Notes under the pieces: model-generated
Databases searched by the model: none
Told to the model about the DNA's origin: nothing
Seen by the model: only the letters and a program-made list of their open reading frames with translations
Part shown: positions 1 to 13,565 of the stretch, piece by piece
How positions within the stretch are numbered: position 1 is the first letter of the stretch
Layout of the letters: every line of letters starts with the position of its first letter
Translations under genes and position numbers: made by a program
Source of the DNA: Bacillota bacterium
GTDB taxonomy: Bacteria > Bacillota_C > Negativicutes > JAEYSJ01
Direction: 5' to 3'
Assembly (NCBI GenBank): GCA_023434855.1
Contig: JAEYSJ010000370.1
Span: forward strand, 1 to 45,141
DNA length: 45,141 nt

Positions 1-234
1 GCCGTAGTGCGGGAGCTATTGCCGCGGATATGCGTTGACGGCAATATCAGGCCATTGGCATTTATTGAAGAAGATACTGAAACCGTTAGTCGCTTAGCAC
101 AGCAATTAGTACAAACATTTTCAGACCGGGGAGGGTTTATTCTTTCCTCGGGCTGTGAGATTCCTCCACAGGCAAGGCCGGACAACGTGAAGGCGTTGAT
201 TGCGGCAGCAACGAAGGGGGAAAAAGGTGTTTAA
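1..234 (+). CDS. C-terminal end of a uroporphyrinogen decarboxylase-like corrinoid methyltransferase (partial)
   Basis: The reading frame is open from the window edge, so only about the last 77 residues are present. The tail pattern SSGCEIPPQARPDNVKAL is typical of the URO-D/MtaA/CmuA fold family, whose members transfer methyl groups to or from corrinoid proteins; the Cys in this motif is commonly a zinc ligand. The stop overlaps the start of the next gene by 8 bp, and that gene encodes a corrinoid activator, which supports a corrinoid methyltransferase rather than heme-pathway HemE. The methyl donor cannot be told from this fragment. Confidence 0.65.
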   Translation, partial: AVVRELLPRICVDGNIRPLAFIEEDTETVSRLAQQLVQTFSDRGGFILSSGCEIPPQARPDNVKALIAAATKGEKGV

Positions 235-1807
235 TATTGATGTAATTGATGCCGGCACTGTAAGAAGAATCTCTTACCGGACTGGAGACAGCCTGTTAGA
301 GACTTTGCACAGCGCCGGTATAAATATAAGGACCGGCTGCCAAAAAACCGGAGCTTGCACACTTTGCCGGATTTTCGTCAGAGAGGGTAATGCTGGTCCA
401 ATAACAACTGCAGAGAAGTCTGAGTTAGGTCATTGGCTTTCTCAAGGAATGCGGCTAGCTTGCCAGGTTGTTCCGAATGGGGATTTGGTTGTCGAACTCA
501 TTTCTCAGGGGAATGCCACAACATTGGCGACTGATTTTGTACAATCCGGATACCAAACTGAAGGGCTTATCAGGACTGATGTTCCCAGTACCGGCTGCGG
601 CGTAGCCGTTGATATCGGAACTACGAATGTCACTATATCTATTTTTCAATGGAAAAATGGTGAGCGGCTTGCCGGGCAAACTTTTAGCAATCCGCAGCGG
701 GAATACGGGTCTGATGTTATTACACGGGTACTGAAAGCTGCTGAGGATCTAAGCTTTGCCAAAGAGTTGCATAACAGGCTATTCAATAAAATTAAAGAAG
801 CTTTGCAGGAGCTTACCAGAGTTGCTAACGTTGGGCTTGAGGAAATTACCGGCATAGGCATAGTCGGTAATACTGCTATGCTCGCTTTATTTCACAGTTC
901 CTCTTATCAGCAATTACTTGATCCCCAATACTGGGAGAAAACTTTGATTCTTCCGGATACTGATGAAAAAGGGATTATTGATTTCTTCCAGATTTCCCGG
1001 CAGGCCAGTGTTAAGGTTATTGATCCCTTAGCCGGTTTTGTCGGATCAGATTTGTTAGCAGGCATCACGGCCATCCGGCTGACGGATAAAGAGCCTGGCA
1101 CTTTGTTTTTGGACTTTGGCACTAATACTGAAATAGCCTTGTGGGACGGGGAAAGGGTGTGGGTGACTGCCGCAGCAGGCGGACCGGCCTTTGAGGGCTG
1201 CGGCATGAGCTTTGGTTCTCCGGCAGTGCCGGGGGCGATTTTTAAGGTCAGCCGGCCGGAAAAACCGGAAAACTCGTTCAGGACTTTAACAATTGACGGT
1301 AAAGACGCTATTGGCATTTGTGGTTCCGGTTATGTCGACATAATCAGTAAGTTGCTTGACATGAACGTGCTGGATGCCATTGGCCGTTTAGCAGGAGCGC
1401 CAGAAAAAGAAATAGTTGTTATGGAAACACCGTTAATCAAAGTCACTAAATGGGATATTGATATGTTCCAGCGGGCCAAAGCGGCTGTAGCAGCCGGTAT
1501 TGAGGTTCTGCTGCACCGGGCGGGAATGTTGTCAGCAGATATTAAACATATTTATGTTGCCGGCAATTTTGGACGGTTCTTGGATGTTGCCAATGCTCAG
1601 CGTATTGGGTTGCTGCCGAGCATTAATGCGGATTATGTTTATTTATGCGGCAATACCGCTTTGCGCGGCTGCGAGGATATTATGTTAAATGGCACAGCCC
1701 GGGATATGCTTTCAACAATAAGAAAAAAAGCCAGTTATATTAATCTCGCGTATGATTCGGAATTTGAGTCTATTTTTATAGACCGCTTATATCTTAGGCC
1801 TTTTTAG
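227..1807 (+). CDS. Corrinoid protein reductive activator (RACo-like, 2Fe-2S plus ASKHA ATPase, DUF4445)
   Basis: The protein has 526 residues from a GTG start at 227, chosen because AAGGGGG lies just upstream; longer in-frame starts lack a ribosome site. Residues 1-90 form a plant-type [2Fe-2S] ferredoxin domain with C38, C44, C47 and C79. From about residue 125 comes an ASKHA ATPase core with phosphate-binding motifs (GVAVDIGTTNVT, LFLDFGTNTEIAL) and a late glycine motif (HIYVAGNFG). Family knowledge: such proteins use ATP and a low-potential electron to return oxidised Co(II) corrinoids to active Co(I). It overlaps the upstream methyltransferase, so both are probably translationally coupled. 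It is shorter than the roughly 630-residue activators of the acetyl-CoA pathway, which fits an O-demethylase or methylamine-type system. Confidence 0.85.
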   Translation: MFNIDVIDAGTVRRISYRTGDSLLETLHSAGINIRTGCQKTGACTLCRIFVREGNAGPITTAEKSELGHWLSQGMRLACQVVPNGDLVVELISQGNATTLATDFVQSGYQTEGLIRTDVPSTGCGVAVDIGTTNVTISIFQWKNGERLAGQTFSNPQREYGSDVITRVLKAAEDLSFAKELHNRLFNKIKEALQELTRVANVGLEEITGIGIVGNTAMLALFHSSSYQQLLDPQYWEKTLILPDTDEKGIIDFFQISRQASVKVIDPLAGFVGSDLLAGITAIRLTDKEPGTLFLDFGTNTEIALWDGERVWVTAAAGGPAFEGCGMSFGSPAVPGAIFKVSRPEKPENSFRTLTIDGKDAIGICGSGYVDIISKLLDMNVLDAIGRLAGAPEKEIVVMETPLIKVTKWDIDMFQRAKAAVAAGIEVLLHRAGMLSADIKHIYVAGNFGRFLDVANAQRIGLLPSINADYVYLCGNTALRGCEDIMLNGTARDMLSTIRKKASYINLAYDSEFESIFIDRLYLRPF

Positions 1808-1852
1808 CAGGACTGAGCAATTTGATCTTAAGCAGTGCTGATGGTTTTCACC

Positions 1853-1910
1853 GGAAGGATCATGACATGAACGTTGGGTTCATGTCATGATCCTTCCTTT
1901 GTTTATTTTG
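1853..1910 (+). terminator. Strong intrinsic terminator after the corrinoid operon
   Basis: Perfect 20-bp arms (1853-1872 and 1878-1897) with a 5-nt loop, followed by a T-rich tract. It insulates the upstream operon from the sigma-54 unit that follows. Confidence 0.9.
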
Positions 1911-2052
1911 TTGTTTTGTCTACCGTGAATAAGTGTACTGAGAGGTGCAAATATACTTTATATGTATACCTTTTCGACACTTTAAAACAGATTGTAAAAT
2001 TGCTTCTTATTTTTAATCCTTTGAGTTTGGCATATTTTACTCTCACACAATG

Positions 2053-2070
2053 TTTGGCACGATTTATGCA
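2053..2070 (+). promoter_or_regulatory. Sigma-54 (-24/-12) promoter of the small-protein operon
   Basis: TTTGGCACGATTTATGCA matches the consensus TGGCAC-N5-TTGC: GG at 2056-2057, exactly ten bases, then GC at 2068-2069. Transcription would begin near 2081, 67 bases ahead of the first supported start codon (2148). The promoter implies an AAA+ enhancer-binding activator, none of which is encoded in the window. Confidence 0.8.
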
Positions 2071-2147
2071 TTGTTAAAATAATAAGAATGATGGCAAATT
2101 GGACAACCAAGGATAGTACAAAAATTTTTAGAAGAGGAGTGTTTCCA

Positions 2148-2360
2148 ATGATCGCATGGCTTGCTTTGCTGCTTAACGCGGCGCTCTTTGTTGCATCTGT
2201 ATTTGGTTTAATTGATTATGGGATTTATCATCATCTTGCTCCTTATTTTTCACTGGGCATAGCAACAAGTATTTTCTCAAGTTTTAGTCTTCTTATGGTG
2301 TTTCAAATTAAAGTGAGACCACGCTATCAGCTTGATAGAAAATCTAATGATGTTTATTAA
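2148..2360 (+). CDS. Small membrane protein, two TM segments (70 aa)
   Basis: Start ATG 2148 follows GAAGAGGAGTG; an earlier in-frame ATG at 2088 has no ribosome site and lies at the predicted transcript start. Two hydrophobic spans (about residues 2-20 and 30-52) are joined by a short YGIYHHL loop and followed by a basic, polar tail. It is first in a four-gene unit behind a sigma-54 promoter. I do not recognise the family. The small size and position suggest an envelope-associated accessory protein, but that is inference. Confidence 0.7.
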   Translation: MIAWLALLLNAALFVASVFGLIDYGIYHHLAPYFSLGIATSIFSSFSLLMVFQIKVRPRYQLDRKSNDVY

Positions 2361-2419
2361 TATTAGAATTGCATATTAATAATATTACCAAATTCATTAA
2401 AAAGAGGGTGAATATAGTG

Positions 2420-2833
2420 ATGGCAATTAGAGAGCTTTTTCAATGGATAGACAGTATGCCTAATGAATTATTTTTTATCATCTGTATAGTAATGGGAATG
2501 TTTGTTATGACGGTATTGGGGATAATTTCTTCTATTCGTATGATATCCAGATACAATGATATAGAGAGTGCGGCAATTGTGGCGGAACGTGCTGTATTCA
2601 CCATTTCTGATCGTGAATTCGGTGTTGACGGCGGGGGAAAATGTACGATGGGCAGCAGTGCCAAAGGGAAAGTTCTGCTGAAGACAGCAAAAGTGCACGC
2701 TGAATTTGGGAGCGGAATAAAAAAGTTCAATTCAACCCTGGTCTCCGAGACTGAAAATGCGTTAATCGATTTCGTCAGTAATGATTGGGAACTAAAAAAT
2801 AAAGGTGGTGACACTGGATGGCCAAATTATTAA
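2420..2833 (+). CDS. Membrane-anchored protein of unknown function (137 aa)
   Basis: Start ATG 2420 (GTG 2417 is an alternative) follows AAAGAGGGTG. After a short amphipathic N-terminus there is one hydrophobic span (about residues 15-38), then a soluble region containing a short glycine-rich stretch (GVDGGGK) and a KVHAEFGSG segment that looks beta-rich. No family is recognised. Its end overlaps the next gene by 16 bp, showing translational coupling within the sigma-54 operon. Confidence 0.7.
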   Translation: MAIRELFQWIDSMPNELFFIICIVMGMFVMTVLGIISSIRMISRYNDIESAAIVAERAVFTISDREFGVDGGGKCTMGSSAKGKVLLKTAKVHAEFGSGIKKFNSTLVSETENALIDFVSNDWELKNKGGDTGWPNY

Positions 2834-3222
2834 TGCTTAGTGGTTTGATTATTGTTATCTCCAGTCTGCTTTTCATTCTTTTCCGGAAGTCAACAGAGGA
2901 AGATCCGCAGCAAGCGTATGTACTAAAAGGTTTGGTCCTATCGGTTTTTGCGGTTGGTGCGTTCAGTGTGGGTAACTGGCTGATCGGGATGCTATTCGCC
3001 AATACTTTGGATAGTAATTTTGAAACACTTGCCGGCTGGATTTTTGCTGTACCGCTGATTTTGTTATTTATCGGTTTAAGCGAGAAACGGAAGCCGGTGC
3101 AGGTACCGCTTAAAGTTAGAAATATTGAGACAGCAGGCAAAGCAAATGAATCAAAAGTGAGAATGATAAGTTCGGAAAGGTATGGCCAGTATCCGCGTTC
3201 CCGCGGACGATACCTGGGATAA
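2818..3222 (+). CDS. Small membrane protein, three predicted TM segments (134 aa)
   Basis: ATG 2818 is preceded by AAAGGTGGTG inside the end of the upstream gene. Hydrophobic spans lie near residues 4-22, 38-60 and 70-87; the C-terminal 45 residues are hydrophilic and strongly basic (RYGQYPRSRGRYLG), probably cytoplasmic. No family is recognised. It is the third gene of the sigma-54 operon. Confidence 0.7.
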   Translation: MAKLLMLSGLIIVISSLLFILFRKSTEEDPQQAYVLKGLVLSVFAVGAFSVGNWLIGMLFANTLDSNFETLAGWIFAVPLILLFIGLSEKRKPVQVPLKVRNIETAGKANESKVRMISSERYGQYPRSRGRYLG

Positions 3223-3237
3223 AAGGAGGCCTCGCTA

Positions 3238-3702
3238 ATGGAAAAGCGTGATTTTTGTGCAAAAAAAAATATAGGCTGCTTAAGGCAAAATAATGCTGGA
3301 TCAGAGTCGCGAGGAAAATCGGAGCATTTTGCGTGTACGGACAATTTTGCGAATATAAGGGAACAGTTTAAAAACAAGTATGGCCAACTTATAGCAGCCG
3401 GTGAAAACGCGTGGGAAGATACAAAAGAAGGAACCGGAGAAACCTGGAATAAGCTTAAGTCATCTTTTGCGCGGTCAATTGCCCTGTTCGAAAAATGCAA
3501 TAACATCGTAACAGCAAATGTTGTTACTACCCAACTGCCAATGAGTAGCGGTACGCTATATCCGAATGCTATGGGGATACAGGAAATAAGATATGATGCA
3601 AAACAGCCGGTAGTTGTAGAAACTCAGCTGAGCATCGACAAGTACTGGGATTGTTCAAAAATAGGACAATGCTACAAAGGGTTTAGGGCTACCTCCGGGT
3701 AG
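3238..3702 (+). CDS. Soluble protein of unknown function, last gene of the sigma-54 operon (154 aa)
   Basis: ATG 3238 follows a strong AAAAGGAGG. The protein is hydrophilic, lacks signal or membrane segments and has several Cys (C7, C14, C33 and two near the C-terminus). A central helical part (about residues 38-85) is followed by a beta-like, Gln/Val-rich region. The stop codon lies inside the downstream terminator hairpin. No family is recognised; it may be a cytoplasmic partner of the three membrane proteins, by context only. Confidence 0.65.
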   Translation: MEKRDFCAKKNIGCLRQNNAGSESRGKSEHFACTDNFANIREQFKNKYGQLIAAGENAWEDTKEGTGETWNKLKSSFARSIALFEKCNNIVTANVVTTQLPMSSGTLYPNAMGIQEIRYDAKQPVVVETQLSIDKYWDCSKIGQCYKGFRATSG

Positions 3703-3715
3703 CCCTTCATTTTTA
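3686..3715 (+). terminator. Terminator of the sigma-54 small-protein operon
   Basis: GGGCTACC/GGTAGCCC arms (3686-3693, 3698-3705) with a 4-nt loop and a T-rich tail. The right arm contains the stop codon of the upstream gene; the tail reaches the stop of the convergent 3D gene. Confidence 0.75.
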
Positions 3716-4204
3716 TCGTACAATTTGCGCTTTCTTCATTTGTCTGCCAAAACGTATCGCCTGCTCGTGACTTGGCATGTAGACATCAATTCGATTTCCG
3801 GTAATTGCGCCGCCCCTATCGGTCACGGTGAATTCTCCCATACCCTCTATGCGGACTTTGGTCCCAAAAGGTATACTGTCATCCATGGCGATATGCCCTA
3901 TTTGAACATGTACGCCGCTTGCAGTAATACCGTCATCTTTGCCGCAACTATTTATGTCGTCAGTGTAGGCAGTGATTTCTGCCATAATTTCATGGTATTG
4001 GGATATGACTTGTTGATCCGGTGCTTTTATACCGGCTTTGGAAATTTCCGTATGCTGGTAGAGATCGTGCAGCGATGGAATTGTTGGGGGATGTGCATTC
4101 TGAACATTGATCTTTGGCACTTCCGCATGGCCGGTATGAGCACTGCCAAGATTTGCGAGAAGAAGGAGTAAAAGTGTCACAGCAATCTCTTCTGGTATTC
4201 GCAT
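3713..4204 (-). CDS. Secreted 3D-domain protein (lytic transglycosylase-like)
   Basis: The protein has 163 residues from ATG 4204, placed after AAGGAGG. An N-terminal signal peptide (about residues 1-28, LLLLLLANLGSAHTGHA) leads to a Pro-rich linker, then a C-terminal 3D domain (about 75-163). Diagnostic motifs are ITAYT near the domain start, IPFGTKVRI, TVTDRGGAITGNRIDVYM and a final HEQAIRFGRQ; the three Asp that name the domain are present. Related proteins (YocH, YuiC, the MltA barrel core) cleave or bind peptidoglycan. It converges on the small-protein operon and may be read from a sigma-54-like site at 4363-4379. Confidence 0.85.
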   Translation of the reverse strand: MRIPEEIAVTLLLLLLANLGSAHTGHAEVPKINVQNAHPPTIPSLHDLYQHTEISKAGIKAPDQQVISQYHEIMAEITAYTDDINSCGKDDGITASGVHVQIGHIAMDDSIPFGTKVRIEGMGEFTVTDRGGAITGNRIDVYMPSHEQAIRFGRQMKKAQIVR

Positions 4205-4600
4205 CAATCTACCTCCTTGCTAATTGTGAAGTAATAGCAATCTGCAACTTGTCTGCGGTTTCGCTGAAATATAACTAAGATTCTCAGGGGCTGAAAACTG
4301 CGTTTTTTTTTAGGGTTCCTTTCATGAATTGACTGAGAAATTATCAGTCAATTTAATAATTATGCAATTTTTATGCCGATATCACAAATTAAGTAGTAAT
4401 TTTCTTAATATATTTTCTTAAGAACGATGGTAACAGGCAGGGTAAGATTAGGTGCTCGTCAGTTGGCTCGATTGTTGTTTTTGCAAACACTATCGGAATA
4501 GTAACACTATTATTCACAGTTCTGTACCTTATGGTTATACTGAAAGGAATTGTTATATGACACTGTTGCTGCTTTATCCTTGAGTTTATGAGTTTTACAG
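4205..4600. other. Intergenic control region between the 3D gene and the micro-gene unit
   Basis: No supported gene. It holds an inverted repeat of 10-bp arms (4327-4336, 4344-4353; AATTGACTGA), a short dyad AATAGT-AAC-ACTATT at 4496-4510, and AT-rich sequence. Either dyad could be an activator site for the flanking sigma-54 promoters. No shared enhancer motif was found among the promoters by eye. Confidence 0.5.
4363..4379 (-). promoter_or_regulatory. Candidate minus-strand sigma-54 promoter for the 3D gene
   Basis: Read on the minus strand, TCGGCATAAAAATTGCA has GG, exactly ten bases, then GC and a perfect TTGCA -12 box; the base before GG is C rather than T. It would start transcription about 148 bases ahead of the 3D gene, directly over the 4327-4353 inverted repeat. 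Confidence 0.4.
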
Positions 4601-4618
4601 GTTGGCATGCATTTTGCA
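4601..4618 (+). promoter_or_regulatory. Sigma-54 promoter of the micro-gene unit
   Basis: GTTGGCATGCATTTTGCA fits the -24/-12 consensus: GG 4604-4605, ten bases, GC 4616-4617. The predicted start near 4630 gives an 85-base leader to the first micro-gene. Confidence 0.8.
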
Positions 4619-4714
4619 ATATGTAAAGAGTATATATGATATTATCTTTAATACTGTGGCAAAAGGCTATTGAGGAACATTTAAGATGAAAACAATATTG
4701 TGGAGGCGAGAGGA

Positions 4715-4825
4715 ATGAGGGAACGTACTTTACGGCGGTTAGAGGAAAATGATCAGTGGGAAAGTTCATTTAGGGACTCGTATGAGCCAAAGAAAAAAAG
4801 AAAGAACCGGAAAAAATTTAACTAA
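4715..4825 (+). CDS. Basic micro-protein of 36 aa
   Basis: ATG 4715 follows GGAGGCGAGAGGA and the frame runs to TAA 4823-4825. The N-terminal half (MRERTLRRLEENDQWESSF) is helical and charged; the last 12 residues are almost all Lys/Arg (KKKRKNRKKFN), suggesting nucleic-acid or membrane-surface binding. It is too small to assign to a family. It is supported by the strong ribosome site and its place directly behind a sigma-54 promoter. Confidence 0.55.
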   Translation: MRERTLRRLEENDQWESSFRDSYEPKKKRKNRKKFN

Positions 4826-4897
4826 AGGTACCAGCGTGCTTGAATAACCAAGAGTAAACTGCGATGACTGAAGAAAATAGAAGGTGGTGATACAGTC

Positions 4898-4990
4898 ATG
4901 GAGTTTTTGATGCCGATAGGACTAGTGTTTGTTGTATTCAGTCTGCTGGTTTTTGCTTTGATTACAGCAACAGATGTCAGCAATTACTAA
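4898..4990 (+). CDS. Single-TM micro-protein of 30 aa
   Basis: ATG 4898 follows AAGGTGGTG; stop TAA 4988-4990. Residues 4-23 form one continuous hydrophobic helix (LMPIGLVFVVFSLLVFALI) with a short polar tail ending in SNY. This is a typical bitopic small membrane protein. It lies between two other small genes in the same transcription unit. Function unknown. Confidence 0.55.
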   Translation: MEFLMPIGLVFVVFSLLVFALITATDVSNY

Positions 4991-5033
4991 GAGAGTATCT
5001 ATTAGCGAATGATTGTGAAAGGGGGAGGCTTAA

Positions 5034-5216
5034 GTGGTAGAAAGAGAACAAGTTGTGAAGATAGTAAAATGCTATCTTCCGCAAGTAAAAGATGATGTCG
5101 CCAATAGAATATCGGAAGACATAGTGCGGAACGTTGAGCTGATTACCCATGCAATGATCAGAAGGGCTGCTGCCCGGCAGAGCCAACAATTATACTGGGC
5201 CAGCTTAAAAAACTAG
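5034..5216 (+). CDS. Small soluble protein of unknown function (60 aa)
   Basis: GTG 5034 is preceded by GGGGGAGG. The product is hydrophilic and predicted all-helical (VVKIVKCYLPQVKDDVANRI, then a second basic helix ending AARQSQQLYWASLKN). It has one Cys and no membrane segment. It is the last gene of the sigma-54 micro-gene unit, ahead of a strong terminator. No family recognised. Confidence 0.6.
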   Translation: MVEREQVVKIVKCYLPQVKDDVANRISEDIVRNVELITHAMIRRAAARQSQQLYWASLKN

Positions 5217-5313
5217 CAGGCAATATCCATTCTGCTAATAATCACCCATTTTCTTCCGTGTTGTTATTCTGGGAACAAGCCTCGCAGCGGAACGGACCAA
5301 AAGAGAGAGTAAA

Positions 5314-5349
5314 CGTGATTTTGCAAGCGGCAAGATCATGTTTTTTTTT
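5314..5349 (+). terminator. Terminator separating the micro-gene unit from glmS
   Basis: An 11-bp stem (5314-5324 with 5330-5340, two G-U pairs) and 5-nt loop are followed by nine T. It shows that glmS needs its own promoter. Confidence 0.85.
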
Positions 5350-5473
5350 ATAGTTTCTGAATACTTTGGATAACTGTGCTGATTATGCACAATCCGGGAT
5401 TTAATGGTTTACAGAAAAGGACAGCTATCGCTAATTCTGTGGCTATTTATGTAAGATTTACGGGAGTTTACCC

Positions 5474-5491
5474 TTTGGCATATATTTTGCA
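5474..5491 (+). promoter_or_regulatory. Sigma-54 promoter of glmS
   Basis: TTTGGCATATATTTTGCA has GG 5477-5478, ten bases, GC 5489-5490. The start near 5502 leaves a leader of about 70 bases, too short for a glmS ribozyme. An imperfect palindrome with TGTGC-N7-GCACA lies about 90 bp upstream (5377-5393) and could be an activator site. Confidence 0.75.
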
Positions 5492-5572
5492 TAATATAAT
5501 CTTCGTATATATAGCAACATTGCAGTTTATAAATCTCGAAAATAAATACGAATTTGAGAGGAGCATGATTTT

Positions 5573-7402
5573 ATGTGCGGAATAGTGGGATATGTTGGTC
5601 CTAAAGAGGCTGGCCAGTTTTTGATTGAGGGGCTGAAAAAGTTGGAATACCGTGGTTATGATTCGGCCGGTATTGCTGTTTCTGACGGTTATGCGATTAA
5701 TATTGAAAAAAGTGTCGGCAGACTAAGTGCATTAGAGAAAAAGGTAGAGATGCAAATGCCTGTTGGCAATATTGGCATCGGCCATACGCGCTGGGCTACT
5801 CATGGCCGTCCCTCAGATGCAAACTCTCATCCGCACACCGACTGTGCCGGTAAATTTGCCGTCGTCCATAACGGTATTATTGAGAATTACATGTATTTAA
5901 AGGAACTGCTTATCAGTAGGGGACATTGTTTTCACTCTGAGACAGACACCGAGGTGCTGGCCCATCTAATGGAAGAAAATTATGAGGGGGATTTCCTGGG
6001 GGCGGTAAAGAAGGTGTTAGCTTTAATTGAAGGCTCCTATGCCATGGTATTTCTGTCCGAATACCATCCTGATACAATCATTTGCTCCAAACAGGACAAC
6101 CCTTTGGTTATCGGATTAGGGGAAAATGAGAATTTCATCGCCTCTGACATCCCGGCGATCATTAATCGCACCCGGGAAATGTATATCTTAGATGATGGTG
6201 AAATGGCTGTCGTTAAAAATGATTCAATCCTGGTGCTGGATCGTCATGGCATGCCTATTGACAAAAAAGTGTTTGAGGTTAACTGGGATGCCGAAGCGGC
6301 AGAAAAGGGCGGTTATGAGCACTTTATGCTTAAGGAAATATATGAGCAGGCAAAGGCTATCCGCAAGACTACAACTGGTAGACTCGCCAAGGATGATGGC
6401 GGAGTTGTCTTTGACGAATTGAATTGGACCAAAGAATTTGTGGCAGACATTAAACGGGTTGTCATTGTTGCCTGCGGCACTTCCTACCATGCCGGAATGG
6501 TTGGTAAATACTATATTGAACAATTGGCCCGTATACCGGTGGAGGTTGATGTCGCTTCCGAATTCCGGTATAGGTCACCGCTTATCGATGGAAACACGCT
6601 GGTTATTGTTATCAGCCAGTCGGGAGAAACGGCTGATACCCTTGCGGCACTGAAAGCTGCTAAGAAGCTTGGTGCTCGGACGTTGGCAATTACCAATGTT
6701 GTCGGTTCGTCAATTGCCAGAGAAGCCGATCAGGTTGTGTATACCTGGGCCGGTCCGGAGATTGCTGTAGCCTCTACTAAGGCATATACTACCCAGCTTG
6801 TCGGGATGTTCTTACTTGCCTTGTATTTGGGGAAACTGCGTAATGAGTCATCACCGGAGCGGATTGCGGAACTTGTGCGGGGCATGCGATTGCTGCCTGT
6901 TCAGGTACACGAAATTCTTGAGAATGTGGATGAGATTAAGAGTTTGGCTGAGCGGTGCGGCTGCTGCGAGGATGTCTTCTTCATTGGCCGGTCCCTGGAC
7001 TATGCGGTAGCATTGGAAGGTTCACTAAAACTTAAGGAGATCTCATATATTCATGCCGAAGCTTATGCTGCTGGCGAACTCAAGCATGGAACCCTGGCCC
7101 TGATTGTTGAAGGTGTGCCGGTCATCGCCCTGGCAACCCAGCCGGATGTATACCAAAAAACCCTGAGCAATATTAAGGAAGTTAAGGCTCGTGGCGCAGA
7201 TGTCATTGGGGTCGCAATGCAGGGCGACCAAGAAATCCAGAAATACGTTGATCACGTCATTTTTATCCCGCCTGCCGATCAATACCTGGCGCCGCTTTTG
7301 GCAGTAATCCCCCTGCAGCTGTTGGCATACTATGCCGCCGTCAGCCGTGGCGCTGATGTGGACAAGCCGCGTAACCTGGCCAAGAGCGTTACGGTGGAGT
7401 AG
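5573..7402 (+). CDS. glmS: Glutamine-fructose-6-phosphate aminotransferase (isomerizing)
   Basis: The 609-residue product makes glucosamine-6-phosphate from fructose-6-phosphate and glutamine, the entry step to UDP-GlcNAc for peptidoglycan and lipopolysaccharide. It begins MCGIVGYVG, giving the N-terminal Cys nucleophile of the class II glutaminase domain (residues 1-220, with HTRWATHG and HNGIIENY). Two SIS sugar-isomerase domains follow (about 285-420, with CGTSYHAG and SQSGETADT; and 455-600), ending in the conserved KPRNLAKSVTVE. Length and motifs are standard. It starts after GAGAGGAGC. It is monocistronic between terminators and preceded by a sigma-54 promoter, which is unusual for this gene in Firmicutes. 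Confidence 0.97.
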   Translation: MCGIVGYVGPKEAGQFLIEGLKKLEYRGYDSAGIAVSDGYAINIEKSVGRLSALEKKVEMQMPVGNIGIGHTRWATHGRPSDANSHPHTDCAGKFAVVHNGIIENYMYLKELLISRGHCFHSETDTEVLAHLMEENYEGDFLGAVKKVLALIEGSYAMVFLSEYHPDTIICSKQDNPLVIGLGENENFIASDIPAIINRTREMYILDDGEMAVVKNDSILVLDRHGMPIDKKVFEVNWDAEAAEKGGYEHFMLKEIYEQAKAIRKTTTGRLAKDDGGVVFDELNWTKEFVADIKRVVIVACGTSYHAGMVGKYYIEQLARIPVEVDVASEFRYRSPLIDGNTLVIVISQSGETADTLAALKAAKKLGARTLAITNVVGSSIAREADQVVYTWAGPEIAVASTKAYTTQLVGMFLLALYLGKLRNESSPERIAELVRGMRLLPVQVHEILENVDEIKSLAERCGCCEDVFFIGRSLDYAVALEGSLKLKEISYIHAEAYAAGELKHGTLALIVEGVPVIALATQPDVYQKTLSNIKEVKARGADVIGVAMQGDQEIQKYVDHVIFIPPADQYLAPLLAVIPLQLLAYYAAVSRGADVDKPRNLAKSVTVE

Positions 7403-7477
7403 CTTGGTTTGGGAGTATTTTTGTAGTTGTTTCATTAAAATAAAGTCGCGGAATGCAAAATAAACACACGGAAAGAG

Positions 7478-7510
7478 CACCACTCCAAATTAAATTTGGA
7501 GTGGTGTTTT
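7478..7510 (+). terminator. glmS terminator
   Basis: Perfect 13-bp arms (7478-7490, 7494-7506) with a 3-nt loop and a short T run. The arm sequence CACCACTCC recurs in the terminator at 38811. Confidence 0.85.
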
Positions 7511-7566
7511 CTACTTAACCTAAAAAGTCGTTTACTGGTTATTTGGAAAATGAAGTCACTTATCAA

Positions 7567-7633
7567 TTACTAAAGAACTTGCTTGGAGATCATGTACAAG
7601 TTCTTTAGTAATGTACAAGTTTTTAGTAATTGA
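7567..7633. repeat. Triple repeat (two inverted, one degenerate) upstream of marR
   Basis: A perfect 15-bp inverted repeat (TTACTAAAGAACTTG at 7567-7581; complement at 7597-7611) is followed at 7617-7633 by a third copy lacking one base. Only 27 bp separate it from the MarR-type operator. It may be a second regulator site or a hairpin. No T-tract follows, so a terminator is unlikely. Confidence 0.7.
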
Positions 7634-7660
7634 CAAACAGTTAATTTACGAATACAATGT

Positions 7661-7676
7661 AGTTGTCAAGACAATT
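7661..7676. promoter_or_regulatory. Probable MarR operator in front of marR-1
   Basis: AGTTGTC-AA-GACAATT is a near-perfect dyad 17 bp before the marR start. The same core appears downstream of this gene and after the sister marR, which supports autoregulation. Confidence 0.65.
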
Positions 7677-7692
7677 ATATTAGGTGGTATAA

Positions 7693-8118
7693 ATGAATTT
7701 TAAATTAGATGATTCATTAGGGTTTATTCTAAATAAAGTTAATACAAAACTAAAAAATGAATTCTTTCAAAAATTAAAAGAAAATGATCTAACGCCAGAG
7801 CAATGGGCTATATTATGCCGATTATGGGAACAAGAAGGTATTACCCCCAAAGAGCTGTCGGATTTGACCTGTAAAGATAAACCGAATACGAATCGCATGT
7901 TGGAGAAGCTAATAATAAAGGGGTTAGTTGTTCGAAATCCTCATCCAGTGGATAAGAGAGCGTTTCAAATATTTTTGACTGACAACGGATGGGCATTGCG
8001 GGAACAATTAGTTCCCAAGGCTAACCAACTTTTGGACAAAGCAACTATGGGAATAGAAGAATATAAAGTTATAGAATTGAAGAAAATGTTAAATCAAATA
8101 TATGATAATATAAAGTAA
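7693..8118 (+). CDS. MarR-family transcriptional regulator (copy 1)
   Basis: The 141-residue protein has the MarR layout: an N-terminal dimerisation helix, a winged helix-turn-helix at about residues 35-100 (LTPEQWAILCRLWEQEGITP, then LSDLTCKDKPNTNRMLEKL and the wing DKRAFQIFLT), and a C-terminal dimer helix. It follows AGGTGG. Its closest relative here is the MarR at 28077: both begin FKLDDSLGFILNKVN and share the wing sequence. A TTGTC-GACAA palindrome lies before and after the gene, so it probably represses itself and the tautomerase/DUF169 genes downstream. The ligand is not evident; the CK pair in the recognition helix offers one Cys. Confidence 0.88.
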   Translation: MNFKLDDSLGFILNKVNTKLKNEFFQKLKENDLTPEQWAILCRLWEQEGITPKELSDLTCKDKPNTNRMLEKLIIKGLVVRNPHPVDKRAFQIFLTDNGWALREQLVPKANQLLDKATMGIEEYKVIELKKMLNQIYDNIK

Positions 8119-8128
8119 TTATTTTTTT

Positions 8129-8160
8129 GTAATTATAGTTGTCTTGACAACTATAATTAC
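8129..8160. promoter_or_regulatory. Perfect 32-bp palindrome downstream of marR-1 (probable operator)
   Basis: Arms 8129-8143 and 8146-8160 are perfect 15-mers around TT, with the core AGTTGTC-TT-GACAACT. The same core precedes marR-1 and follows marR-2. No T-tract follows, so it reads as an operator for the downstream tautomerase/DUF169 genes. Confidence 0.65.
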
Positions 8161-8334
8161 AACTATTGTGATGATTGTTATCTGTGCAATTTATTACGGT
8201 ATTTTATTCTGATTTAAGACTGTAGTTAAATTATAAGGGGGAATGCTTATTTAAGTAACCTACAGCAAGATGGATGATTGACTGGTGTGGGTGCTAATCA
8301 AGTTGCAAATAATTATGGAAGAAGGTGAGAAATG

Positions 8335-8523
8335 ATGCCAGTAATTACCCTTGACGGCCCTAAAATTTCTAAAGAACAAAAGGCCAAACTTGTAAAAGAA
8401 TTTGTTACAAAGGCAAGTGAAATACTTAATATTCCTCAACAGAATTTTGTAACTTTAATTAAAGAGAATGATTTTGATAACATAGGTACCGGAACGAAAC
8501 TACTATCAGACAGAGTCGAGTAA
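8335..8523 (+). CDS. 4-oxalocrotonate tautomerase family protein (copy 1)
   Basis: The 62-residue product starts at the second ATG of ATGATGCCA so that Met is followed by Pro, the catalytic N-terminal proline of the family after Met removal. The sequence MPVITLDGPKISKEQKAKLV and the later VTLIKENDFDNIGTG match the small 4-OT fold of two beta-alpha-beta units. Members tautomerise or hydrolyse unsaturated keto acids and related electrophiles. Compared with the two other copies in the window, it lacks the WGVGG motif (NIGTG instead). It lies behind a MarR operator. The substrate is unknown. Confidence 0.85.
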   Translation: MPVITLDGPKISKEQKAKLVKEFVTKASEILNIPQQNFVTLIKENDFDNIGTGTKLLSDRVE

Positions 8524-8633
8524 GCCATACAGCAAAGTGCTAATATGACCAACCTGTACACCAATATCCAATGCAAAACCAAGTGATATTCGTGGAAACA
8601 CGTTAAATTACAAATCGGATTGGAGTGGAAAAT

Positions 8634-9377
8634 ATGGAAAGCTATTTAATCAAAGAATTGAACTTGCGTTATGAACCGGTAGCTGTTTTATTTAGCAATG
8701 AGAAGCCTGAAGGAGCACTTCAGAGTAAGGAAGGTCATTGGAGTTGCATAATTCCGTTATTTATTGCGGCGGCAAAAGGTAAAACGGCAGTTTTTGAACG
8801 TAAAACAACAGTCTGTCCTGGCGGAAAGGTAGGCTTAGGGTTTGGTCAGTATCCTAATCCGCTACCACAGTTTCCAGGTGGAATTGAGCATTTTCTATCA
8901 ACTGGTAAAGGTGAAATTGAAGGAGAGGGTTATATAAAAGACCCGGAGTTAGGTAAAGATTTTGTTGAATGCCTGCCAATAACTGATATTCCTTATCAGT
9001 ACGTAATTTTTAGACCGATGTCACAAATTGATACTACCAAAGAAAAGCCTGAGCTAATTGTATTTTATGTCAATAACGACCAGTTATCAGCACTTACAGT
9101 ACTTGCTAATTATTACAGATCGGGAAATGAAAACGTTATGATACCTCAAAGTTCAGGATGTCAGTCTATTTTTCTCCTTCCTTACGCTGAAGCTCAAAAG
9201 GAAAATCCAAGAGCAGTAGTAGGTTTGACCGATATTACAGTACGGCCCATGGTTGATCCTGACATGCTGTCGTTTTCTGTGCCATATGCAATGTTTTTAG
9301 AAATGGAAAAAAACGTTGCAGGAAGTTTCATGGAAAAGCATTTGTGGCATAAGCTAGTGGCTAGAATGAAAAAATAG
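8634..9377 (+). CDS. DUF169 family protein
   Basis: The product has 247 residues from ATG 8634, well placed after GGAG (a GTG at 8625 is possible). Features of DUF169 (COG2043) are the N-terminal LRYEPVAVLF, the glycine-rich CPGGKVGLGFGQ around residue 65, the central ELIVFYVNNDQLSAL, and SSGCQSIFLLPY with a conserved Cys. The fold's biochemistry is not established; members occur beside redox and methyl-transfer genes. It shares the region behind the MarR palindrome with the tautomerase and ends at a terminator. Confidence 0.85.
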   Translation: MESYLIKELNLRYEPVAVLFSNEKPEGALQSKEGHWSCIIPLFIAAAKGKTAVFERKTTVCPGGKVGLGFGQYPNPLPQFPGGIEHFLSTGKGEIEGEGYIKDPELGKDFVECLPITDIPYQYVIFRPMSQIDTTKEKPELIVFYVNNDQLSALTVLANYYRSGNENVMIPQSSGCQSIFLLPYAEAQKENPRAVVGLTDITVRPMVDPDMLSFSVPYAMFLEMEKNVAGSFMEKHLWHKLVARMKK

Positions 9378-9479
9378 TACAACCTTTGAGACGTAATTTC
9401 ATAAGGCTTAGTTAAAATACGAGTAGATCTGAATGGAGTAAAAGCGGTTATCTGTTTAAGGTTGCGGTGTAATACAAAC

Positions 9480-9508
9480 AACGCCATTCCAAATTGGAAT
9501 GGCGTTTT
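9480..9508 (+). terminator. Terminator after the DUF169 gene
   Basis: AACGCCATTCC arms (9480-9490, 9496-9506) around AAATT, followed by a short T run. It has the same style as the glmS terminator. Confidence 0.75.
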
Positions 9509-9552
9509 ACAGCTAGGATGCCGGATTAACAATATTAAGTGAGGGTTTGATT

Positions 9553-10419
9553 ATGATTCTCATAACTGGAGCCAACGGGCAAACTGGTCGAGCAATAATT
9601 TGGGCTTTATTATCTAAAGGAGAGGAAGTTCGGGCTTATGTTCATAAAGCTGAATATATCCAGGAACTTAAATCCTTGGGGGTAAAGGAAGTGGTTACGG
9701 GAGACATGATGGATCAAGAGGCAACGAATGAAGCATTTAAAGGAATTCGAGCCGCATATCACATTTGTTCTGCCGTGAATCCTGATGAAGTTCAGATAGG
9801 ACAAATAGCAATAAACGCCGCTCGTTCCGCCCAAATAGAACATTTTGTGTACCATTCGGTGCTTCATTCCGTACTTCGGGACTTACCACATCATCAGAAA
9901 AAACTTATGGTAGAGGAAATAGTGGTAAATTCAGGTATACCATACACCATTATTCAGCCTGCAGCATTCATGCAGAATATACTTCAAGGTTGGAAGTTGC
10001 TTAGCGATGAAGGTGTATTTGAGCAGAGATTTTTTACGTCAGAAAAAACACGCATTTGTATGGTTGACTTAGAAGATTTGGCAGAAGCTGTTTCTATAAT
10101 TCTCACTAAGCCAGGTCATGCGGGTGCCACTTATGAAATATGTGGCCCTGAAAATTTATCTTTGGCTGATATGTTAGCCGCATTTAAACAGAATTTCGGA
10201 CGTGAAGTCCAAGCTCAAACAACTCCAGTTGAACTGTGGGCGGCACAAATGAAAAAGCATGGTTTAGGAGACTACCAAATTAATACACTATTAACGATGT
10301 TTCATCATTATAATGAACATGGATTTGCTGGTAATCCAAATGTTCTGACATGGATACTAGGCCGAAGACCAAATGATTTTATATCCTTTATTCATAGGAC
10401 AATGCAAAGCAAAAGATAA
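9553..10419 (+). CDS. NmrA-like NAD(P)-binding oxidoreductase or redox sensor
   Basis: The 288-residue protein starts at ATG 9553 after GAGGG. The N-terminus has the Rossmann motif ITGANGQTGRAI. Later features of the atypical short-chain dehydrogenase/NmrA group are VYHSVLHS near residue 100 and TIIQPAAFMQNIL near 135; the usual YxxxK pair is not evident. The C-terminal part (YEICGPENLSLADMLAAF) is typical of the family. Members are NAD(P)H-quinone reductases or redox-sensing binders. It stands alone between terminators. Confidence 0.85.
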   Translation: MILITGANGQTGRAIIWALLSKGEEVRAYVHKAEYIQELKSLGVKEVVTGDMMDQEATNEAFKGIRAAYHICSAVNPDEVQIGQIAINAARSAQIEHFVYHSVLHSVLRDLPHHQKKLMVEEIVVNSGIPYTIIQPAAFMQNILQGWKLLSDEGVFEQRFFTSEKTRICMVDLEDLAEAVSIILTKPGHAGATYEICGPENLSLADMLAAFKQNFGREVQAQTTPVELWAAQMKKHGLGDYQINTLLTMFHHYNEHGFAGNPNVLTWILGRRPNDFISFIHRTMQSKR

Positions 10420-10476
10420 GTGCGGTAAAATAAAGCGAAAGGTTCGGAGGTAGTCGGACGGACAGACATACTTTGG

Positions 10477-10505
10477 AAACAGGCTCAAACTGAGTCTGTT
10501 TTTTC
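10477..10505 (+). terminator. Terminator after the NmrA-like gene
   Basis: AAACAGGCTC pairs with GAGTCTGTTT (one G-U) around AAACT, ending in a run of T. The same AACAGGCTC arm is reused at 22293. Confidence 0.8.
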
Positions 10506-10550
10506 GGTTGTGGTGATTTAGTTAGGTCTTGGACTGGCAGAGGCGTAGAT

Positions 10551-10940
10551 CTATTTACAATTTTCCATGCTGTTCCTTTTTTGATTATTAAGTTTAAGTT
10601 GTTCTTCGCCCCATAGATACATTTGATGCAAGGCAGGAAATAATGTTTTTCCTCTTTCTGTTACAGAATATTCAACTTTGGGAGGTATGGTTTCATATTG
10701 TTTTCGCGTAACAAGGTTATGAGACTCCAATTCTTGTAAAGACTTTGTAAGCATCATATTAGTTATGCCGCTGATTGCTCGTTTCAATTCATTATATCTA
10801 ACGGGCTGATTTTTAATTAAATAGTAGAGGATGGGTATTTTCCATTTTTGCCCCAAAATATCAAGGGCGTAGATAATAGGACACTGTATTTCATATATGT
10901 TCTCCTGTGGAAAGGGTTTGTCAGGAAGATGCTTATTCAT
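10551..10940 (-). CDS. HxlR-family transcriptional regulator (copy 1)
   Basis: The 129-residue winged-helix protein starts after GGAGG. HxlR hallmarks are CPIIYALDILGQKWKIPILY, RYNELKRAISGITNMMLTKS, LVTRKQYETIPPKVEYSVTE and GKTLFPAL. C20 sits at the position of the redox Cys of YodB and related members, which sense quinones, diamide or aldehydes by thiol chemistry. It is divergent from the yqhD-like gene with about 140 bp between, so it most likely controls that gene and itself. Confidence 0.9.
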   Translation of the reverse strand: MNKHLPDKPFPQENIYEIQCPIIYALDILGQKWKIPILYYLIKNQPVRYNELKRAISGITNMMLTKSLQELESHNLVTRKQYETIPPKVEYSVTERGKTLFPALHQMYLWGEEQLKLNNQKRNSMENCK

Positions 10941-11081
10941 AATTACAACTCCTCCATTTTATGGTATATTTTGTATGCTCGCACAGAAAAAACTGCGTAC
11001 TTGTTCATTTTTTTGCTCTGATGATATATTGATTATAGCAAGAAAAACTGTAAATGGAAATATGCAGAAAGGGGTTCTAAG

Positions 11082-12248
11082 ATGCTTAACTTTGATTTTT
11101 ATAATCCAACACGCATTATTTTTGGTAAGGATAGGCTGGAAACCATTGATGCGTTTGTTCCGGCCGAAGCCGCAGTTTTAATAACCTACGGTGGTGGCAG
11201 CGCTAAAAGAAGCGGTCTTATCGACAAGGTTAAAGCTGTACTGAGGGACAGGAAAGTTTATGAATTCGGCGGCATAGAGTCCAATCCACGCTACGAAACA
11301 TTGCTAAAAGCCGTAGAAGTTGTACGCACAGAGAGTATCGATTTCATACTTGCGGTTGGCGGGGGTTCCGTTATTGACGGGACAAAATTCATATCCCTGG
11401 CAGCATCCTACGCGGGGGAAGCCAGTGACCTGTTCAAATTCGGCTTTATGCTTGTACCCTTAGATGTAGTAGGAAAAGCCGTTCCATTTGGTACCGTGCT
11501 TACTATACCTGCTACCGGTTCAGAAGTGAATTTTGCCGCTGTAATCAGCTATGGGCATGGAAAATATCTTGTTAACAGTGAGCTCATTTTCCCTAAATTT
11601 TCAATACTGGATCCGGTCATTACCTTTACCCTGCCCAAGATTCAGGTGGCCAATGGCGTAGTTGATGCCTTTGTACATACAATTGAGCAGTATCTTACCT
11701 TCCCTGCAGACGCCAGGGTGCAGGACCGGATGGCGGAAGGCATTTTGCAGACCTTGATTGAAATCGGCGCCGCCACTGTTGCTGAACCTGAAAATTACGA
11801 TGTACGGGCCAATCATGTTTGGGCTGCCACTACGGCAATGATGGGAGTAATCGGCGCAGGGGTACCCCAGGATTGGACGAGTCATATGATCGGTCACGAG
11901 CTAACCGCGCTCTTTGGCATTGATCATGGACAGACGCTGGCCATCGTCCTGCCGTCACTCCTAACGGAGCGGCGCCAACAAAAACGCGCTAAACTTCTGC
12001 AGTATGCCGAACGGGTATGGCATATCGAAAGCGGCAGCGAAGATGAAAAAATTGACTTGGCCATCGCAAAAACCAGAGACTTCTTTGAAAGCCTTGGCGT
12101 AAAGACCCGCCTATCAGAGTATGGCGTCGGCGCTGATAAAATACCGGTTGTTGTTGAGCAACTCAAGGCTCATGGGCTGACAGCCCTTTCGGAGACCGGG
12201 GATTTGACCTTGGATATAAGCCGGAAGATTCTTGAAGGGGCTATGTAA
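11082..12248 (+). CDS. yqhD: NADPH-dependent aldehyde reductase, YqhD/BDH-type iron-containing alcohol dehydrogenase
   Basis: The 388-residue product closely follows E. coli YqhD in length and motifs: LITYGGGSAKRSG, EFGGIESNPRYETL, ILAVGGGSVIDGTKFI, TIPATGSE, the metal-site VVDAFVHTIEQY, GVPQDWTSHMIGHELTA and DHGQTLAIVLP. Metal ligands Asp and three His are present. GGGS motifs bind the dinucleotide. The family reduces a broad range of short-chain and lipid-derived aldehydes, including methylglyoxal, with NADPH. It is divergent from an HxlR regulator and precedes a DJ-1/PfpI gene, a combination pointing to aldehyde stress. Confidence 0.92.
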   Translation: MLNFDFYNPTRIIFGKDRLETIDAFVPAEAAVLITYGGGSAKRSGLIDKVKAVLRDRKVYEFGGIESNPRYETLLKAVEVVRTESIDFILAVGGGSVIDGTKFISLAASYAGEASDLFKFGFMLVPLDVVGKAVPFGTVLTIPATGSEVNFAAVISYGHGKYLVNSELIFPKFSILDPVITFTLPKIQVANGVVDAFVHTIEQYLTFPADARVQDRMAEGILQTLIEIGAATVAEPENYDVRANHVWAATTAMMGVIGAGVPQDWTSHMIGHELTALFGIDHGQTLAIVLPSLLTERRQQKRAKLLQYAERVWHIESGSEDEKIDLAIAKTRDFFESLGVKTRLSEYGVGADKIPVVVEQLKAHGLTALSETGDLTLDISRKILEGAM

Positions 12249-12302
12249 TACGCTAAGGGTTGCTGTTCACCGCTATGGATAGGCTTTATGCCTTCCCAGC
12301 AT
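12248..12302 (+). pseudogene. Scar of an alpha/beta-hydrolase paralogue
   Basis: Immediately after the yqhD stop, about 55 bp match part of the hydrolase gene at 14209-14264 (ACGCTAAGGG, then ATGGATAGGCT, TTATGC, CAGC in the same order with a few changes and small deletions). In the intact gene this region encodes SMDRLYAYSAF. No open frame remains. It is read as debris of a deleted duplicate. Confidence 0.6.
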
Positions 12303-12344
12303 TCAAGCGAAATAAGAAACATGAAAAATGAGGAGAGATGAAAA

Positions 12345-13037: not shown

Positions 13038-13143
13038 CCCCGCTTGCTAAGTATGCAATCTATCATGGGCTCTTATTTTTTAAGCCCTTATGTGCTTAGA
13101 ATTGTAAGATAAACAGAAAATGATAGGGAAAGGAGGAATAACA

Positions 13144-13344: not shown

Positions 13345-13374
13345 GTGACTTTTTCCAAGAGGCTTTGTTGAGGA

Positions 13375-13427
13375 GACCGGTGCATCGTGTTGGCGTTAAC
13401 ATGGACGCTGGCACGATGCAACCGGTC
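13375..13427. repeat. Long imperfect stem-loop between tautomerase and hydrolase genes
   Basis: The arms GACCGGTGCATCGTG (13375-13389) and the complement at 13412-13427 (one bulged base) enclose a second nested stem, GCGT/ACGC. No T-tract follows. The surrounding 220 bp has no supported gene, although the hydrolase frame is open through it. Confidence 0.6.
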
Positions 13428-13565
13428 GCTCACTGTGGACGGTCCGAACTTCAGACCCGGGATTGTGGGGGATTTGATGATCGGACCGTAACTTTCGAAA
13501 ATAACAGAGTTCATCCAAAACGTCCATATGGTTGTAACTTTATAGAACGTAAAGGAGAAACGATT

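What the first reader, a model, noticed from the sequence alone, without database searches (positions are those of the whole stretch)
2053..5573. Three near-perfect sigma-54 promoters control a cell-envelope block of unknown small proteins and glmS
GG-N10-GC elements with TGGCA and TTGC/ATGC context occur at 2053, 4601 and 5474, each 67-85 bases before a gene with a strong ribosome site. They serve a four-gene operon of unknown membrane/soluble proteins, three micro-genes and glmS. Sigma-54 is used sparingly in Firmicutes, mostly for sugar or amino acid use; a cluster of small membrane genes beside an amino-sugar gene would be a new envelope-response arrangement. In E. coli the glmS-regulating sRNA genes glmY/glmZ have sigma-54 promoters, an interesting parallel.
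Basis: partly seen in the sequence, partly recalled or inferred. Interest (0 to 1): 0.75.

Follow-up and report, generated by a model that had tools for sequence, protein, structure and literature searches.

The report
Sigma-54 glmS lacking its ribozyme
In an uncultured Lucifera- or Sporomusa-like bacterium, the gene for the first step of cell-wall sugar synthesis lacks the self-cutting RNA switch seen before it in its close relatives and instead sits, with small stress-like genes, behind sigma-54 type promoters, which suggests a wall-building enzyme switched on by command.

Summary
Two perfect -24/-12 elements (4603, 5476) and one with one mismatch (2055) precede three units, each followed by a hairpin; 0 of 2000 shuffles of 1808-5572 match that density. 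A weaker minus-strand site (4378) precedes a 3D-domain wall-type gene. Same-order relatives use the motif widely: 23-44 perfect sites in 8 genomes, 0-6 for the reversed motif, so sigma-54 is not rare here.

The window has no recognisable glmS ribozyme; 33 of 33 relatives' loci examined have it (class-wide 246 of 380 genomes). None of the 33 has a comparable sigma-54 site; 0 of 380 class genomes match the exact arrangement. The 3' flank is 86% identical in DNA to Lucifera butyrica's glmS flank, yet GlmS is 76% identical, on a long branch; sisterhood with that GlmS is disfavoured (p-AU 0.02).

Best reading: a relocated or displaced alternative GlmS, freed from GlcN6P-triggered mRNA cleavage, in a sigma-54 block with orphan, partly sll1863/SYLF-like genes. 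Activator, signal, rpoN dependence and GlmS copy number are unknown: no genome is held.

The parts
2055..2070 (+). Site A: -24/-12 element, one mismatch, before the four-gene unit
   Evidence: shuffles; leader about 67 nt
2148..2360 (+). ORF1, 70 aa, hydrophobic (probably two membrane spans, judged by eye); orphan
   Evidence: no hit in 28 same-order genomes
2420..2833 (+). ORF2, 137 aa: probable membrane anchor (by eye) plus a stretch like the first half of a Ysc84/SYLF protein
2818..3222 (+). ORF3, 134 aa, hydrophobic, orphan
   Evidence: Bac_rhodopsin match below its cut-off, not believed
3238..3702 (+). ORF4, 154 aa, sll1863-like stress protein
   Evidence: NF052504 E 1.8e-8, 34.4 bits against cut-off 35; relatives in G294 and G306
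3685..3706 (+). terminator-like hairpin ending unit A
3713..4204 (-). 3D-domain protein (PF06725), probably secreted, wall type
   Evidence: PF06725 3.1e-14; partial similarity to Ent/SpsC wall proteins far below their cut-offs
4363..4378 (-). Site D: possible -24/-12 element, one mismatch, before the 3D gene; divergent from site B
   Evidence: weak: seen upstream of 1 of 30 homologue matches
4603..4618 (+). Site B: perfect -24/-12 element
4715..4825 (+). 36-aa basic micro-gene
   Evidence: no family
4898..4990 (+). 30-aa hydrophobic micro-gene
   Evidence: frame checked, ribosome site read by eye; no family at its cut-off
5034..5216 (+). 60-aa micro-gene; seven relatives in same-order genomes, three of them in sigma-54 operons with a kinase and an NtrC-type activator
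5311..5343 (+). terminator-like hairpin ending unit B
5476..5491 (+). Site C: perfect -24/-12 element, the only strong promoter-like signal before glmS
5502..5572 (+). glmS leader, about 71 nt, no ribozyme and no notable fold
   Evidence: (z 0.40)
5573..7402 (+). glmS (609 aa), divergent, not beside glmM
7476..7512 (+). strong terminator-like hairpin after glmS
   Evidence: z -6.5; not in the list

Best explanation
The block is a sigma-54-commanded set of three (perhaps four) short transcription units in an uncultured Lucifera/Sporomusa-like Negativicute. RNA polymerase with sigma-54 would sit at the -24/-12 elements and stay silent until an enhancer-binding activator, encoded outside the window and most plausibly an NtrC-type two-component activator, is switched on, probably by an envelope or general stress. 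It would then make small membrane and sll1863/SYLF-like proteins and a divergent GlmS. This glmS lacks the GlcN6P-sensing self-cleaving ribozyme that precedes glmS in its near relatives, so its mRNA would not be cut when GlcN6P is plentiful: supply of the wall precursor would follow the activator's signal instead of product feedback. Shown: the sites, the hairpins, the absence of a recognisable ribozyme and of glmM, the GlmS divergence, the synteny of the 3' flank. Inferred: promoter activity, activator, signal, membrane functions, and that this is an alternative copy, acquired or duplicated, rather than the cell's only GlmS.
For: Sites far above chance in the segment and motif enriched in same-order relatives; hairpins end the units, no strong sigma-70-like site before glmS. 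No Rfam hit in the window at E<=1 and only sub-threshold, unrelated hits near glmS at E<=10, while the ribozyme precedes glmS in 33 of 33 loci L081-L113 and is found in 24 of 28 same-order genomes (of the other four, G295, G303 and G313 have no full-length glmS hit, and G296 has glmM-type and glmS genes nearly abutting, without ribozyme or sigma-54 site). 0 of 380 class genomes have the exact motif 60-90 nt before ATGTGYGGNATHGT; the window does. GlmS: best listed relative 80% (120 best of 7997 scored candidates), 18 departures at otherwise invariant columns against median 1 and next highest 7, sisterhood with L. butyrica disfavoured (p-AU 0.02), although the flank from 7629 is 86% identical DNA. 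Three relatives have the 60-aa protein in a sigma-54 operon with kinase and activator.
Against: No own genome is held, so rpoN, the activator and a second glmS cannot be checked. Ribozyme absence is not unique in the class: 134 of 380 genomes have no match over the cut-off. No shared upstream activator motif among A, B and C. Of seven 60-aa relatives four are not in sigma-54 operons, and one of these is the most identical. Site D: 1 of 30 homologue matches has a comparable site upstream (L228). GlmS lies at the canonical 3' flank, which also fits displacement of the only copy. The AU group was named after the tree was seen and a long branch is in play. One contig only; a join between 7403 and 7629 is not excluded: tetranucleotide make-up ties the left part to the rest of the window at the usual level, but to L. 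butyrica less than the right part.
Confidence: 0.5

Rival explanations
1. Displacement of the only GlmS: the canonical glmM-ribozyme-glmS was broken up in this lineage and a foreign or fast-evolving glmS now serves the whole cell, with sigma-54 as its main promoter (an unseen weak sigma-70 start may give basal expression).
For: The 3' flank of the window glmS (from 7629) is the 3' flank of L. butyrica glmS at 86% DNA identity, so the gene sits at the ancestral place. Two sigma-70-like hits of 9 of 12 overlap site C. No second full-length glmS in the closest relative G316.
Against: An essential enzyme under a promoter that is silent without an activator is unlikely (general knowledge). 18 departures at invariant columns fit relaxed, duplicate-type evolution better. 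Sigma-70-like hits are at shuffle level (18 found, 15.8 expected in the region).
Confidence: 0.3
2. Assembly join: the left part (1 to about 7.4 kb) belongs to another, unsampled Negativicute and was joined to a Lucifera-like contig after glmS. The sigma-54 glmS would still be real, but in a different host.
For: In the 40 kb of G316 compared, the left part matches only at glmS (71%), the right part at several blocks of 84-94%; in the search of the whole of G316 with 1-20000 the left part again matched only at glmS. The GlmS tree places the window with G291, G315, G310, G311, G314 and not with L. butyrica. Tetranucleotide correlation with the two L. butyrica stretches is 0.811 and 0.850 for the left part, 0.862 and 0.935 for the (longer) right part.
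Against: Correlation of 1-7400 with the rest of the window is 0.869, inside the 0.829-0.901 range of the 16 overlapping 7.4-kb stretches. glmS identity to L. butyrica is fairly even along the gene (0.67-0.79 per 183 nt), so no joint inside it is seen.
Confidence: 0.12
3. The motifs are chance matches or decayed sites, and ordinary sigma-70 promoters run these genes.
For: A sigma-70-like hit overlaps site A (TTGGCA-18-AATAAT, 10 of 12) and one lies before site B (4513, TTCACA-17-TATACT, 10 of 12). No conservation of site C.
Against: Two perfect elements in 3.8 kb, 0 of 2000 shuffles; similar spacing to the start in all three; same-order genomes hold many more perfect motifs than reversed ones.
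Confidence: 0.08

Closest known systems
glmS ribozyme-controlled glmS of Bacillota/Negativicutes (RF00234)
   Same: same enzyme, same clade, same 3' flank as in L. butyrica
   Different: no recognisable ribozyme, no glmM upstream, sigma-54 element followed by a leader of about 71 nt, divergent protein
E. coli sigma-54 / QseEF / GlmY-GlmZ-RapZ control of glmS (PMC6075780, PMC10216114, passages)
   Same: sigma-54 and probably a two-component activator linked to GlcN6P supply and envelope balance
   Different: there sigma-54 drives the sRNA GlmY, which acts through RapZ and GlmZ on glmS mRNA; here the element is on glmS itself and no known sRNA was found in the window
Sigma-54 as controller of the bacterial exterior (PMC3162934, 12 of 20 places seen; D. 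vulgaris regulome PMC4641369, passages)
   Same: sigma-54 promoters on envelope and amino-sugar genes
   Different: the passages seen name nagA and glmY but no direct glmS promoter; the rest of these papers was not read
NodM of rhizobia, a second glucosamine synthase under its own regulator (recalled; papers seen only as a search listing)
   Same: would be an extra GlmS tied to a special programme
   Different: nod-box/NodD control in symbiosis (recalled); second copy not shown here

Membership tests
Sigma-54 (-24/-12) promoter | GG-N10-GC core in TGGCAY-N5-TTGCW | tested here: met
   two perfect, one with one mismatch
Sigma-54 (-24/-12) promoter | density above chance and suitable distance to a start codon | tested here: met
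   (segment chosen after the finding)
Sigma-54 (-24/-12) promoter | upstream activator binding sites shared by the promoters | tested here: inconclusive
   no shared word above shuffles among A, B, C; dyads between the divergent D and B not tested further
Sigma-54 (-24/-12) promoter | rpoN in the genome and rpoN-dependent transcription | not testable with these tools
   no genome held; needs RNA data
glmS ribozyme-controlled glmS (RF00234) | ribozyme in the 5' leader | tested here: not met
   relatives 33 of 33 examined positive
canonical cdaA-cdaR-glmM-glmS locus | glmM directly upstream of glmS | tested here: not met
   window reading against L. butyrica and eight other relatives (gene names recalled)
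GlmS enzyme | full glutaminase and SIS domains above cut-off | tested here: met
   TIGR01135 832 bits against 418; Pfam SIS and GATase
E. coli GlmY/GlmZ system | GlmY/GlmZ-like sRNA genes near or before glmS | tested here: not met
   no Rfam match in the window; sRNAs elsewhere in the genome not testable
sll1863 stress family (NF052504), ORF4 | score at or above cut-off 35 | tested here: inconclusive
   34.4 bits, E 1.8e-8
Ysc84/SYLF (PF04366), ORF2 | Pfam match of the protein itself | tested here: not met
   no match; 37.7% over 74 residues to the G294 protein that matches Ysc84, C-terminal half missing
Dedicated second GlmS (NodM-like) | another GlmS in the same genome | not testable with these tools
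   no genome held

The most novel reading that the evidence does not exclude
A whole lineage-specific control switch: an alternative GlmS that escaped the glmS ribozyme and was rewired to sigma-54, so that envelope precursor supply is raised by an external or envelope stress signal against product feedback, co-commanded with a new set of orphan small envelope-stress proteins and possibly a wall (3D) protein.
Probability: 0.35. Interest if true: 0.72.

Novelty: new variant of a known kind. Interest (0 to 1): 0.55.

Why it matters
glmS control is a textbook case: self-cleaving ribozyme in Bacillota, sRNAs in enterobacteria. A ribozyme-free glmS behind a perfect sigma-54 element, among relatives whose 33 examined loci all carry the ribozyme, would be a third design, putting sigma-54 directly on the gene, and a natural experiment in how a riboswitch is lost and replaced. 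It also gives small orphan proteins a testable regulon.

Tried and rejected
Conservation of site C at glmS: looked for in 80 loci L001-L080 (1200 bases upstream; three had less: L013, L074, L079) and 33 loci L081-L113 (1500 bases; L081, L082, L083 are the genomes of L025, L011, L010): no site with at most one mismatch. Sites with two mismatches within 300 bases of glmS occur in L022, L054 and L069, all outside Negativicutes by their titles; their chance level was not computed. The Negativicutes loci among L001-L080 were not searched with Rfam. The class pattern search allowed no mismatch and only 60-90 nt spacing.

Plasmid origin: no megablast match for 1-20000 in PLSDB. Protein relatives: ORF2 and ORF4 each find only themselves at E<=0.001 among 5.8 billion proteins, by a search that needs shared 5-residue words. 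Sigma-54 loci of L. butyrica: 30 of 44 perfect sites were read; 19 gave a gene with a ribosome site within 450 bases, 11 none; no relative of the orphan genes; by eye mostly amino-acid, sugar and other metabolic genes, plus two SLH-domain proteins. Leader structure: none. Shared activator motif: none (one search was a faulty run that picked the wrong record and was replaced). Pfam Bac_rhodopsin match of ORF3 (21.6 bits against 24.6) rejected as hydrophobicity. A crossover inside glmS between a canonical and an alternative copy was considered; fairly even identity along the gene speaks against it.

Papers: searches, 74 of the CC-licensed PMC library only. 'glmS, sigma-54, ribozyme' gave one paper, whose sigma-54 word concerns another sigma factor. 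'RpoN, Negativicutes' and 'glmS ribozyme, Negativicutes' gave none. Of 48 papers with glmS and sigma54, 15 were listed and two of these opened at passages (PMC6075780; PMC3162934). So 'not in print' is claimed only for these searches. Passages were seen of PMC3162934, PMC10216114, PMC2258182, PMC4641369, PMC6789579, PMC6075780, PMC6315149; no paper was read whole. NodM, cdaA/cdaR names and the general behaviour of sigma-54 are recalled.
Full report
What was checked. The window (45,141 bases, no own genome held) carries at 2055, 4603 and 5476 the sequence TGGCA[CT]-N5-[TA]TGCA with GG-N10-GC. Shuffling the segment 1808-5572 gives on average 0.0175 perfect sites and 0.21 with at most one mismatch; 2 and 4 are seen, and 0 of 2000 shuffles reach either number. 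The segment was picked after the fact; in the whole window the 2 perfect sites are matched by 1 of 200 shuffles and the 5 sites with at most one mismatch by 23 of 200. The best control is real genomes: the perfect motif occurs 31, 28, 23, 25, 42, 32 and 35 times in seven same-order genomes (G309, G311, G308, G310, G314, G291, G315) against 2, 5, 3, 5, 0, 2 and 3 for the motif read backwards, and 44 against 6 in G316. G088 and G086, of another order, show no clear excess (4 v 3, 3 v 0). So the motif is over-represented in this order, and its use is not sparing.

Units. Site A leads to four genes and a hairpin at 3685-3706; site B to three micro-genes and a hairpin at 5311-5343; site C to glmS, followed by a strong hairpin at 7476-7512 (z -6.5). 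Predicted leaders are about 67, 86 and 71 nt. A one-mismatch site on the minus strand at 4378 points at a 3D-domain gene (PF06725); with site B it would form a divergent pair. It is weak: of 30 fetched loci with homologues, only L228 has a site with at most one mismatch upstream of the match.

The proteins. ORF2 and ORF4 find nothing but themselves in a word-based search of 5.8 billion proteins. A joined query of six of the window's small proteins against 28 same-order genomes found distant relatives in 8. ORF4 is near the sll1863 stress family (34.4 bits, cut-off 35, E 1.8e-8), and sll1863 is listed among stress-induced genes of Synechocystis (PMC6789579, one passage). ORF2 is 37.7% identical over 74 residues to a G294 protein that matches Ysc84, but lacks the second half. 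In G294 the relatives of ORF2 and ORF4 are neighbours, which supports a real functional pair; there the only comparable element (one mismatch) lies inside an upstream frame, about 600 bases before. The 60-aa protein has seven relatives; three (G311, G314, G312) stand in an operon with a perfect sigma-54 element, a 106-aa protein, a kinase-type and an activator-type gene, followed by another perfect element (domains confirmed for G312). The other four are not in such operons, and the most identical one (40%, G291) is among them. So the link to that activator is a lead only.

The glmS surprise. In near relatives glmS is preceded by the glmS ribozyme: 20 of 20 loci and 13 of 13 (the 30 best GlmS matches of the class search plus three others). 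Over the class 246 of 380 genomes have it above the cut-off and 134 do not; in the order of the closest relatives 24 of 28 have it. Of the four without it, G295, G303 and G313 show no full-length glmS hit, and G296 has a glmM-type gene running almost straight into glmS with neither ribozyme nor sigma-54 site. The window has no Rfam match at E<=1 anywhere, only sub-threshold hits to unrelated families around glmS at E<=10, and a leader that folds no better than its shuffles (z 0.40). In the nine relatives printed, the reading frame upstream of glmS is of glmM type (judged from the sequence); in the window it is not. The exact pattern sigma-54 element, 60-90 nt, ATGTGYGGNATHGT is in the window and in 0 of 380 class genomes.

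Where this glmS comes from. From 7629 on, the window is 86% identical in DNA to G316:C83:42111-44848, and further blocks of 84-94% follow, one of them (21141-22195) and two short ones out of order; for a few genes farther on other genomes, such as G302, match as well or better (87% against 85% around 39-40 kb). That contig is Lucifera butyrica by its length and the protein name, an acidotolerant spore-former that stains Gram-positive (PMC6315149, passages). In it these genes follow cdaA/cdaR-like genes, glmM, ribozyme and glmS (names recalled; ribozyme). But the window's glmS is only 71% identical in DNA, fairly evenly along the gene, and 76% in protein; the best listed of the scored candidates in the large database is 80%, whereas the eight relatives compared share about 81-88%. 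In the tree it has an end branch of 0.44 against a median of 0.072 and groups with G291, G315, G310, G311 and G314 (99/97, 94/97 and not starred); sisterhood with L. butyrica is disfavoured at p-AU 0.02 (the group was named after the tree was seen, and a long branch is in play). It departs from 18 columns invariant in all other 30 rows; the median row has 1, the next highest 7. So it is not the plain ortholog that the flank predicts: either an alternative copy (acquired or duplicated and relocated) or a displaced only copy. An assembly join is possible: the left part's tetranucleotide make-up correlates with the rest of the window at 0.869, in the range 0.829-0.901 of the 16 overlapping stretches, which gives no hint of one; but its correlation with two L. 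butyrica stretches (0.811, 0.850) is lower than the right part's (0.862, 0.935), the left part being much shorter.

How it may work. Sigma-54 polymerase makes no transcript without an activator (recalled). With the ribozyme gone, high GlcN6P would not trigger cleavage of this mRNA (mechanism of the ribozyme: PMC10216114, passages). An activator-driven pulse of GlmS together with small membrane and sll1863/SYLF-like proteins would suit envelope repair or remodelling. That is inference; no signal or activator is known, and A, B and C share no upstream motif that I could find.

Place among known things. A link of sigma-54 to envelope and amino sugars is published (PMC3162934, PMC4641369, passages), and in E. 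coli sigma-54 acts on glmS through the sRNA GlmY and QseF (PMC6075780, passages). I found no report of a direct sigma-54 promoter on glmS in the searches listed, which cover only openly licensed papers and of which I saw listings and passages. I therefore rate it a new variant of a known kind: the elements are known, the combination appears not to be, and it rests on one contig.

Noticed in passing
L160 5883 and 9947, L171 7639 and 11602 (and L164): In three relatives a sigma-54 operon encodes 106-aa and 60-aa proteins, a kinase-type and an NtrC-type activator gene (domains confirmed for L171), followed by a second sigma-54 unit with a glutamate-dehydrogenase-like gene (by eye); TGCAA-type repeats, read by eye, lie upstream of the first element.
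   Followed up: partly
L179 (G291:C120): G291 has a second, 74%-identical glmS on a small contig, also with a ribozyme, so glmS duplication may occur in this order (or the bin is mixed).
   Followed up: partly
L186 1791-2162, L204 71-1294: Two SLH-domain proteins of L. butyrica start 274 and 206 bases after perfect sigma-54 elements, a possible envelope link of sigma-54 in the nearest relative.
   Followed up: partly
window 7629-10419: MarR, tautomerase-like, DUF169-like and NmrA genes form a cassette (names partly recalled) that is beside glmS in L. butyrica but away from glmS in G302, G297 and G304.
   Followed up: partly
window 30491-33126: PPDK_N and PEP-utiliser mobile domains lie in two adjacent genes 8 bases apart; most of the stretch is conserved at 65-76% DNA in several relatives.
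   Followed up: no
L180 10076-13297 (G296): A small same-order genome has glmM-type and glmS genes nearly abutting, without a ribozyme and without a sigma-54 site: a separate loss of the ribozyme or a misplaced bin.
   Followed up: partly
window 22344-24599: Two adjacent DUF362 genes, one with a TAT signal (just above its cut-off) and one with 4Fe-4S domains.
   Followed up: no
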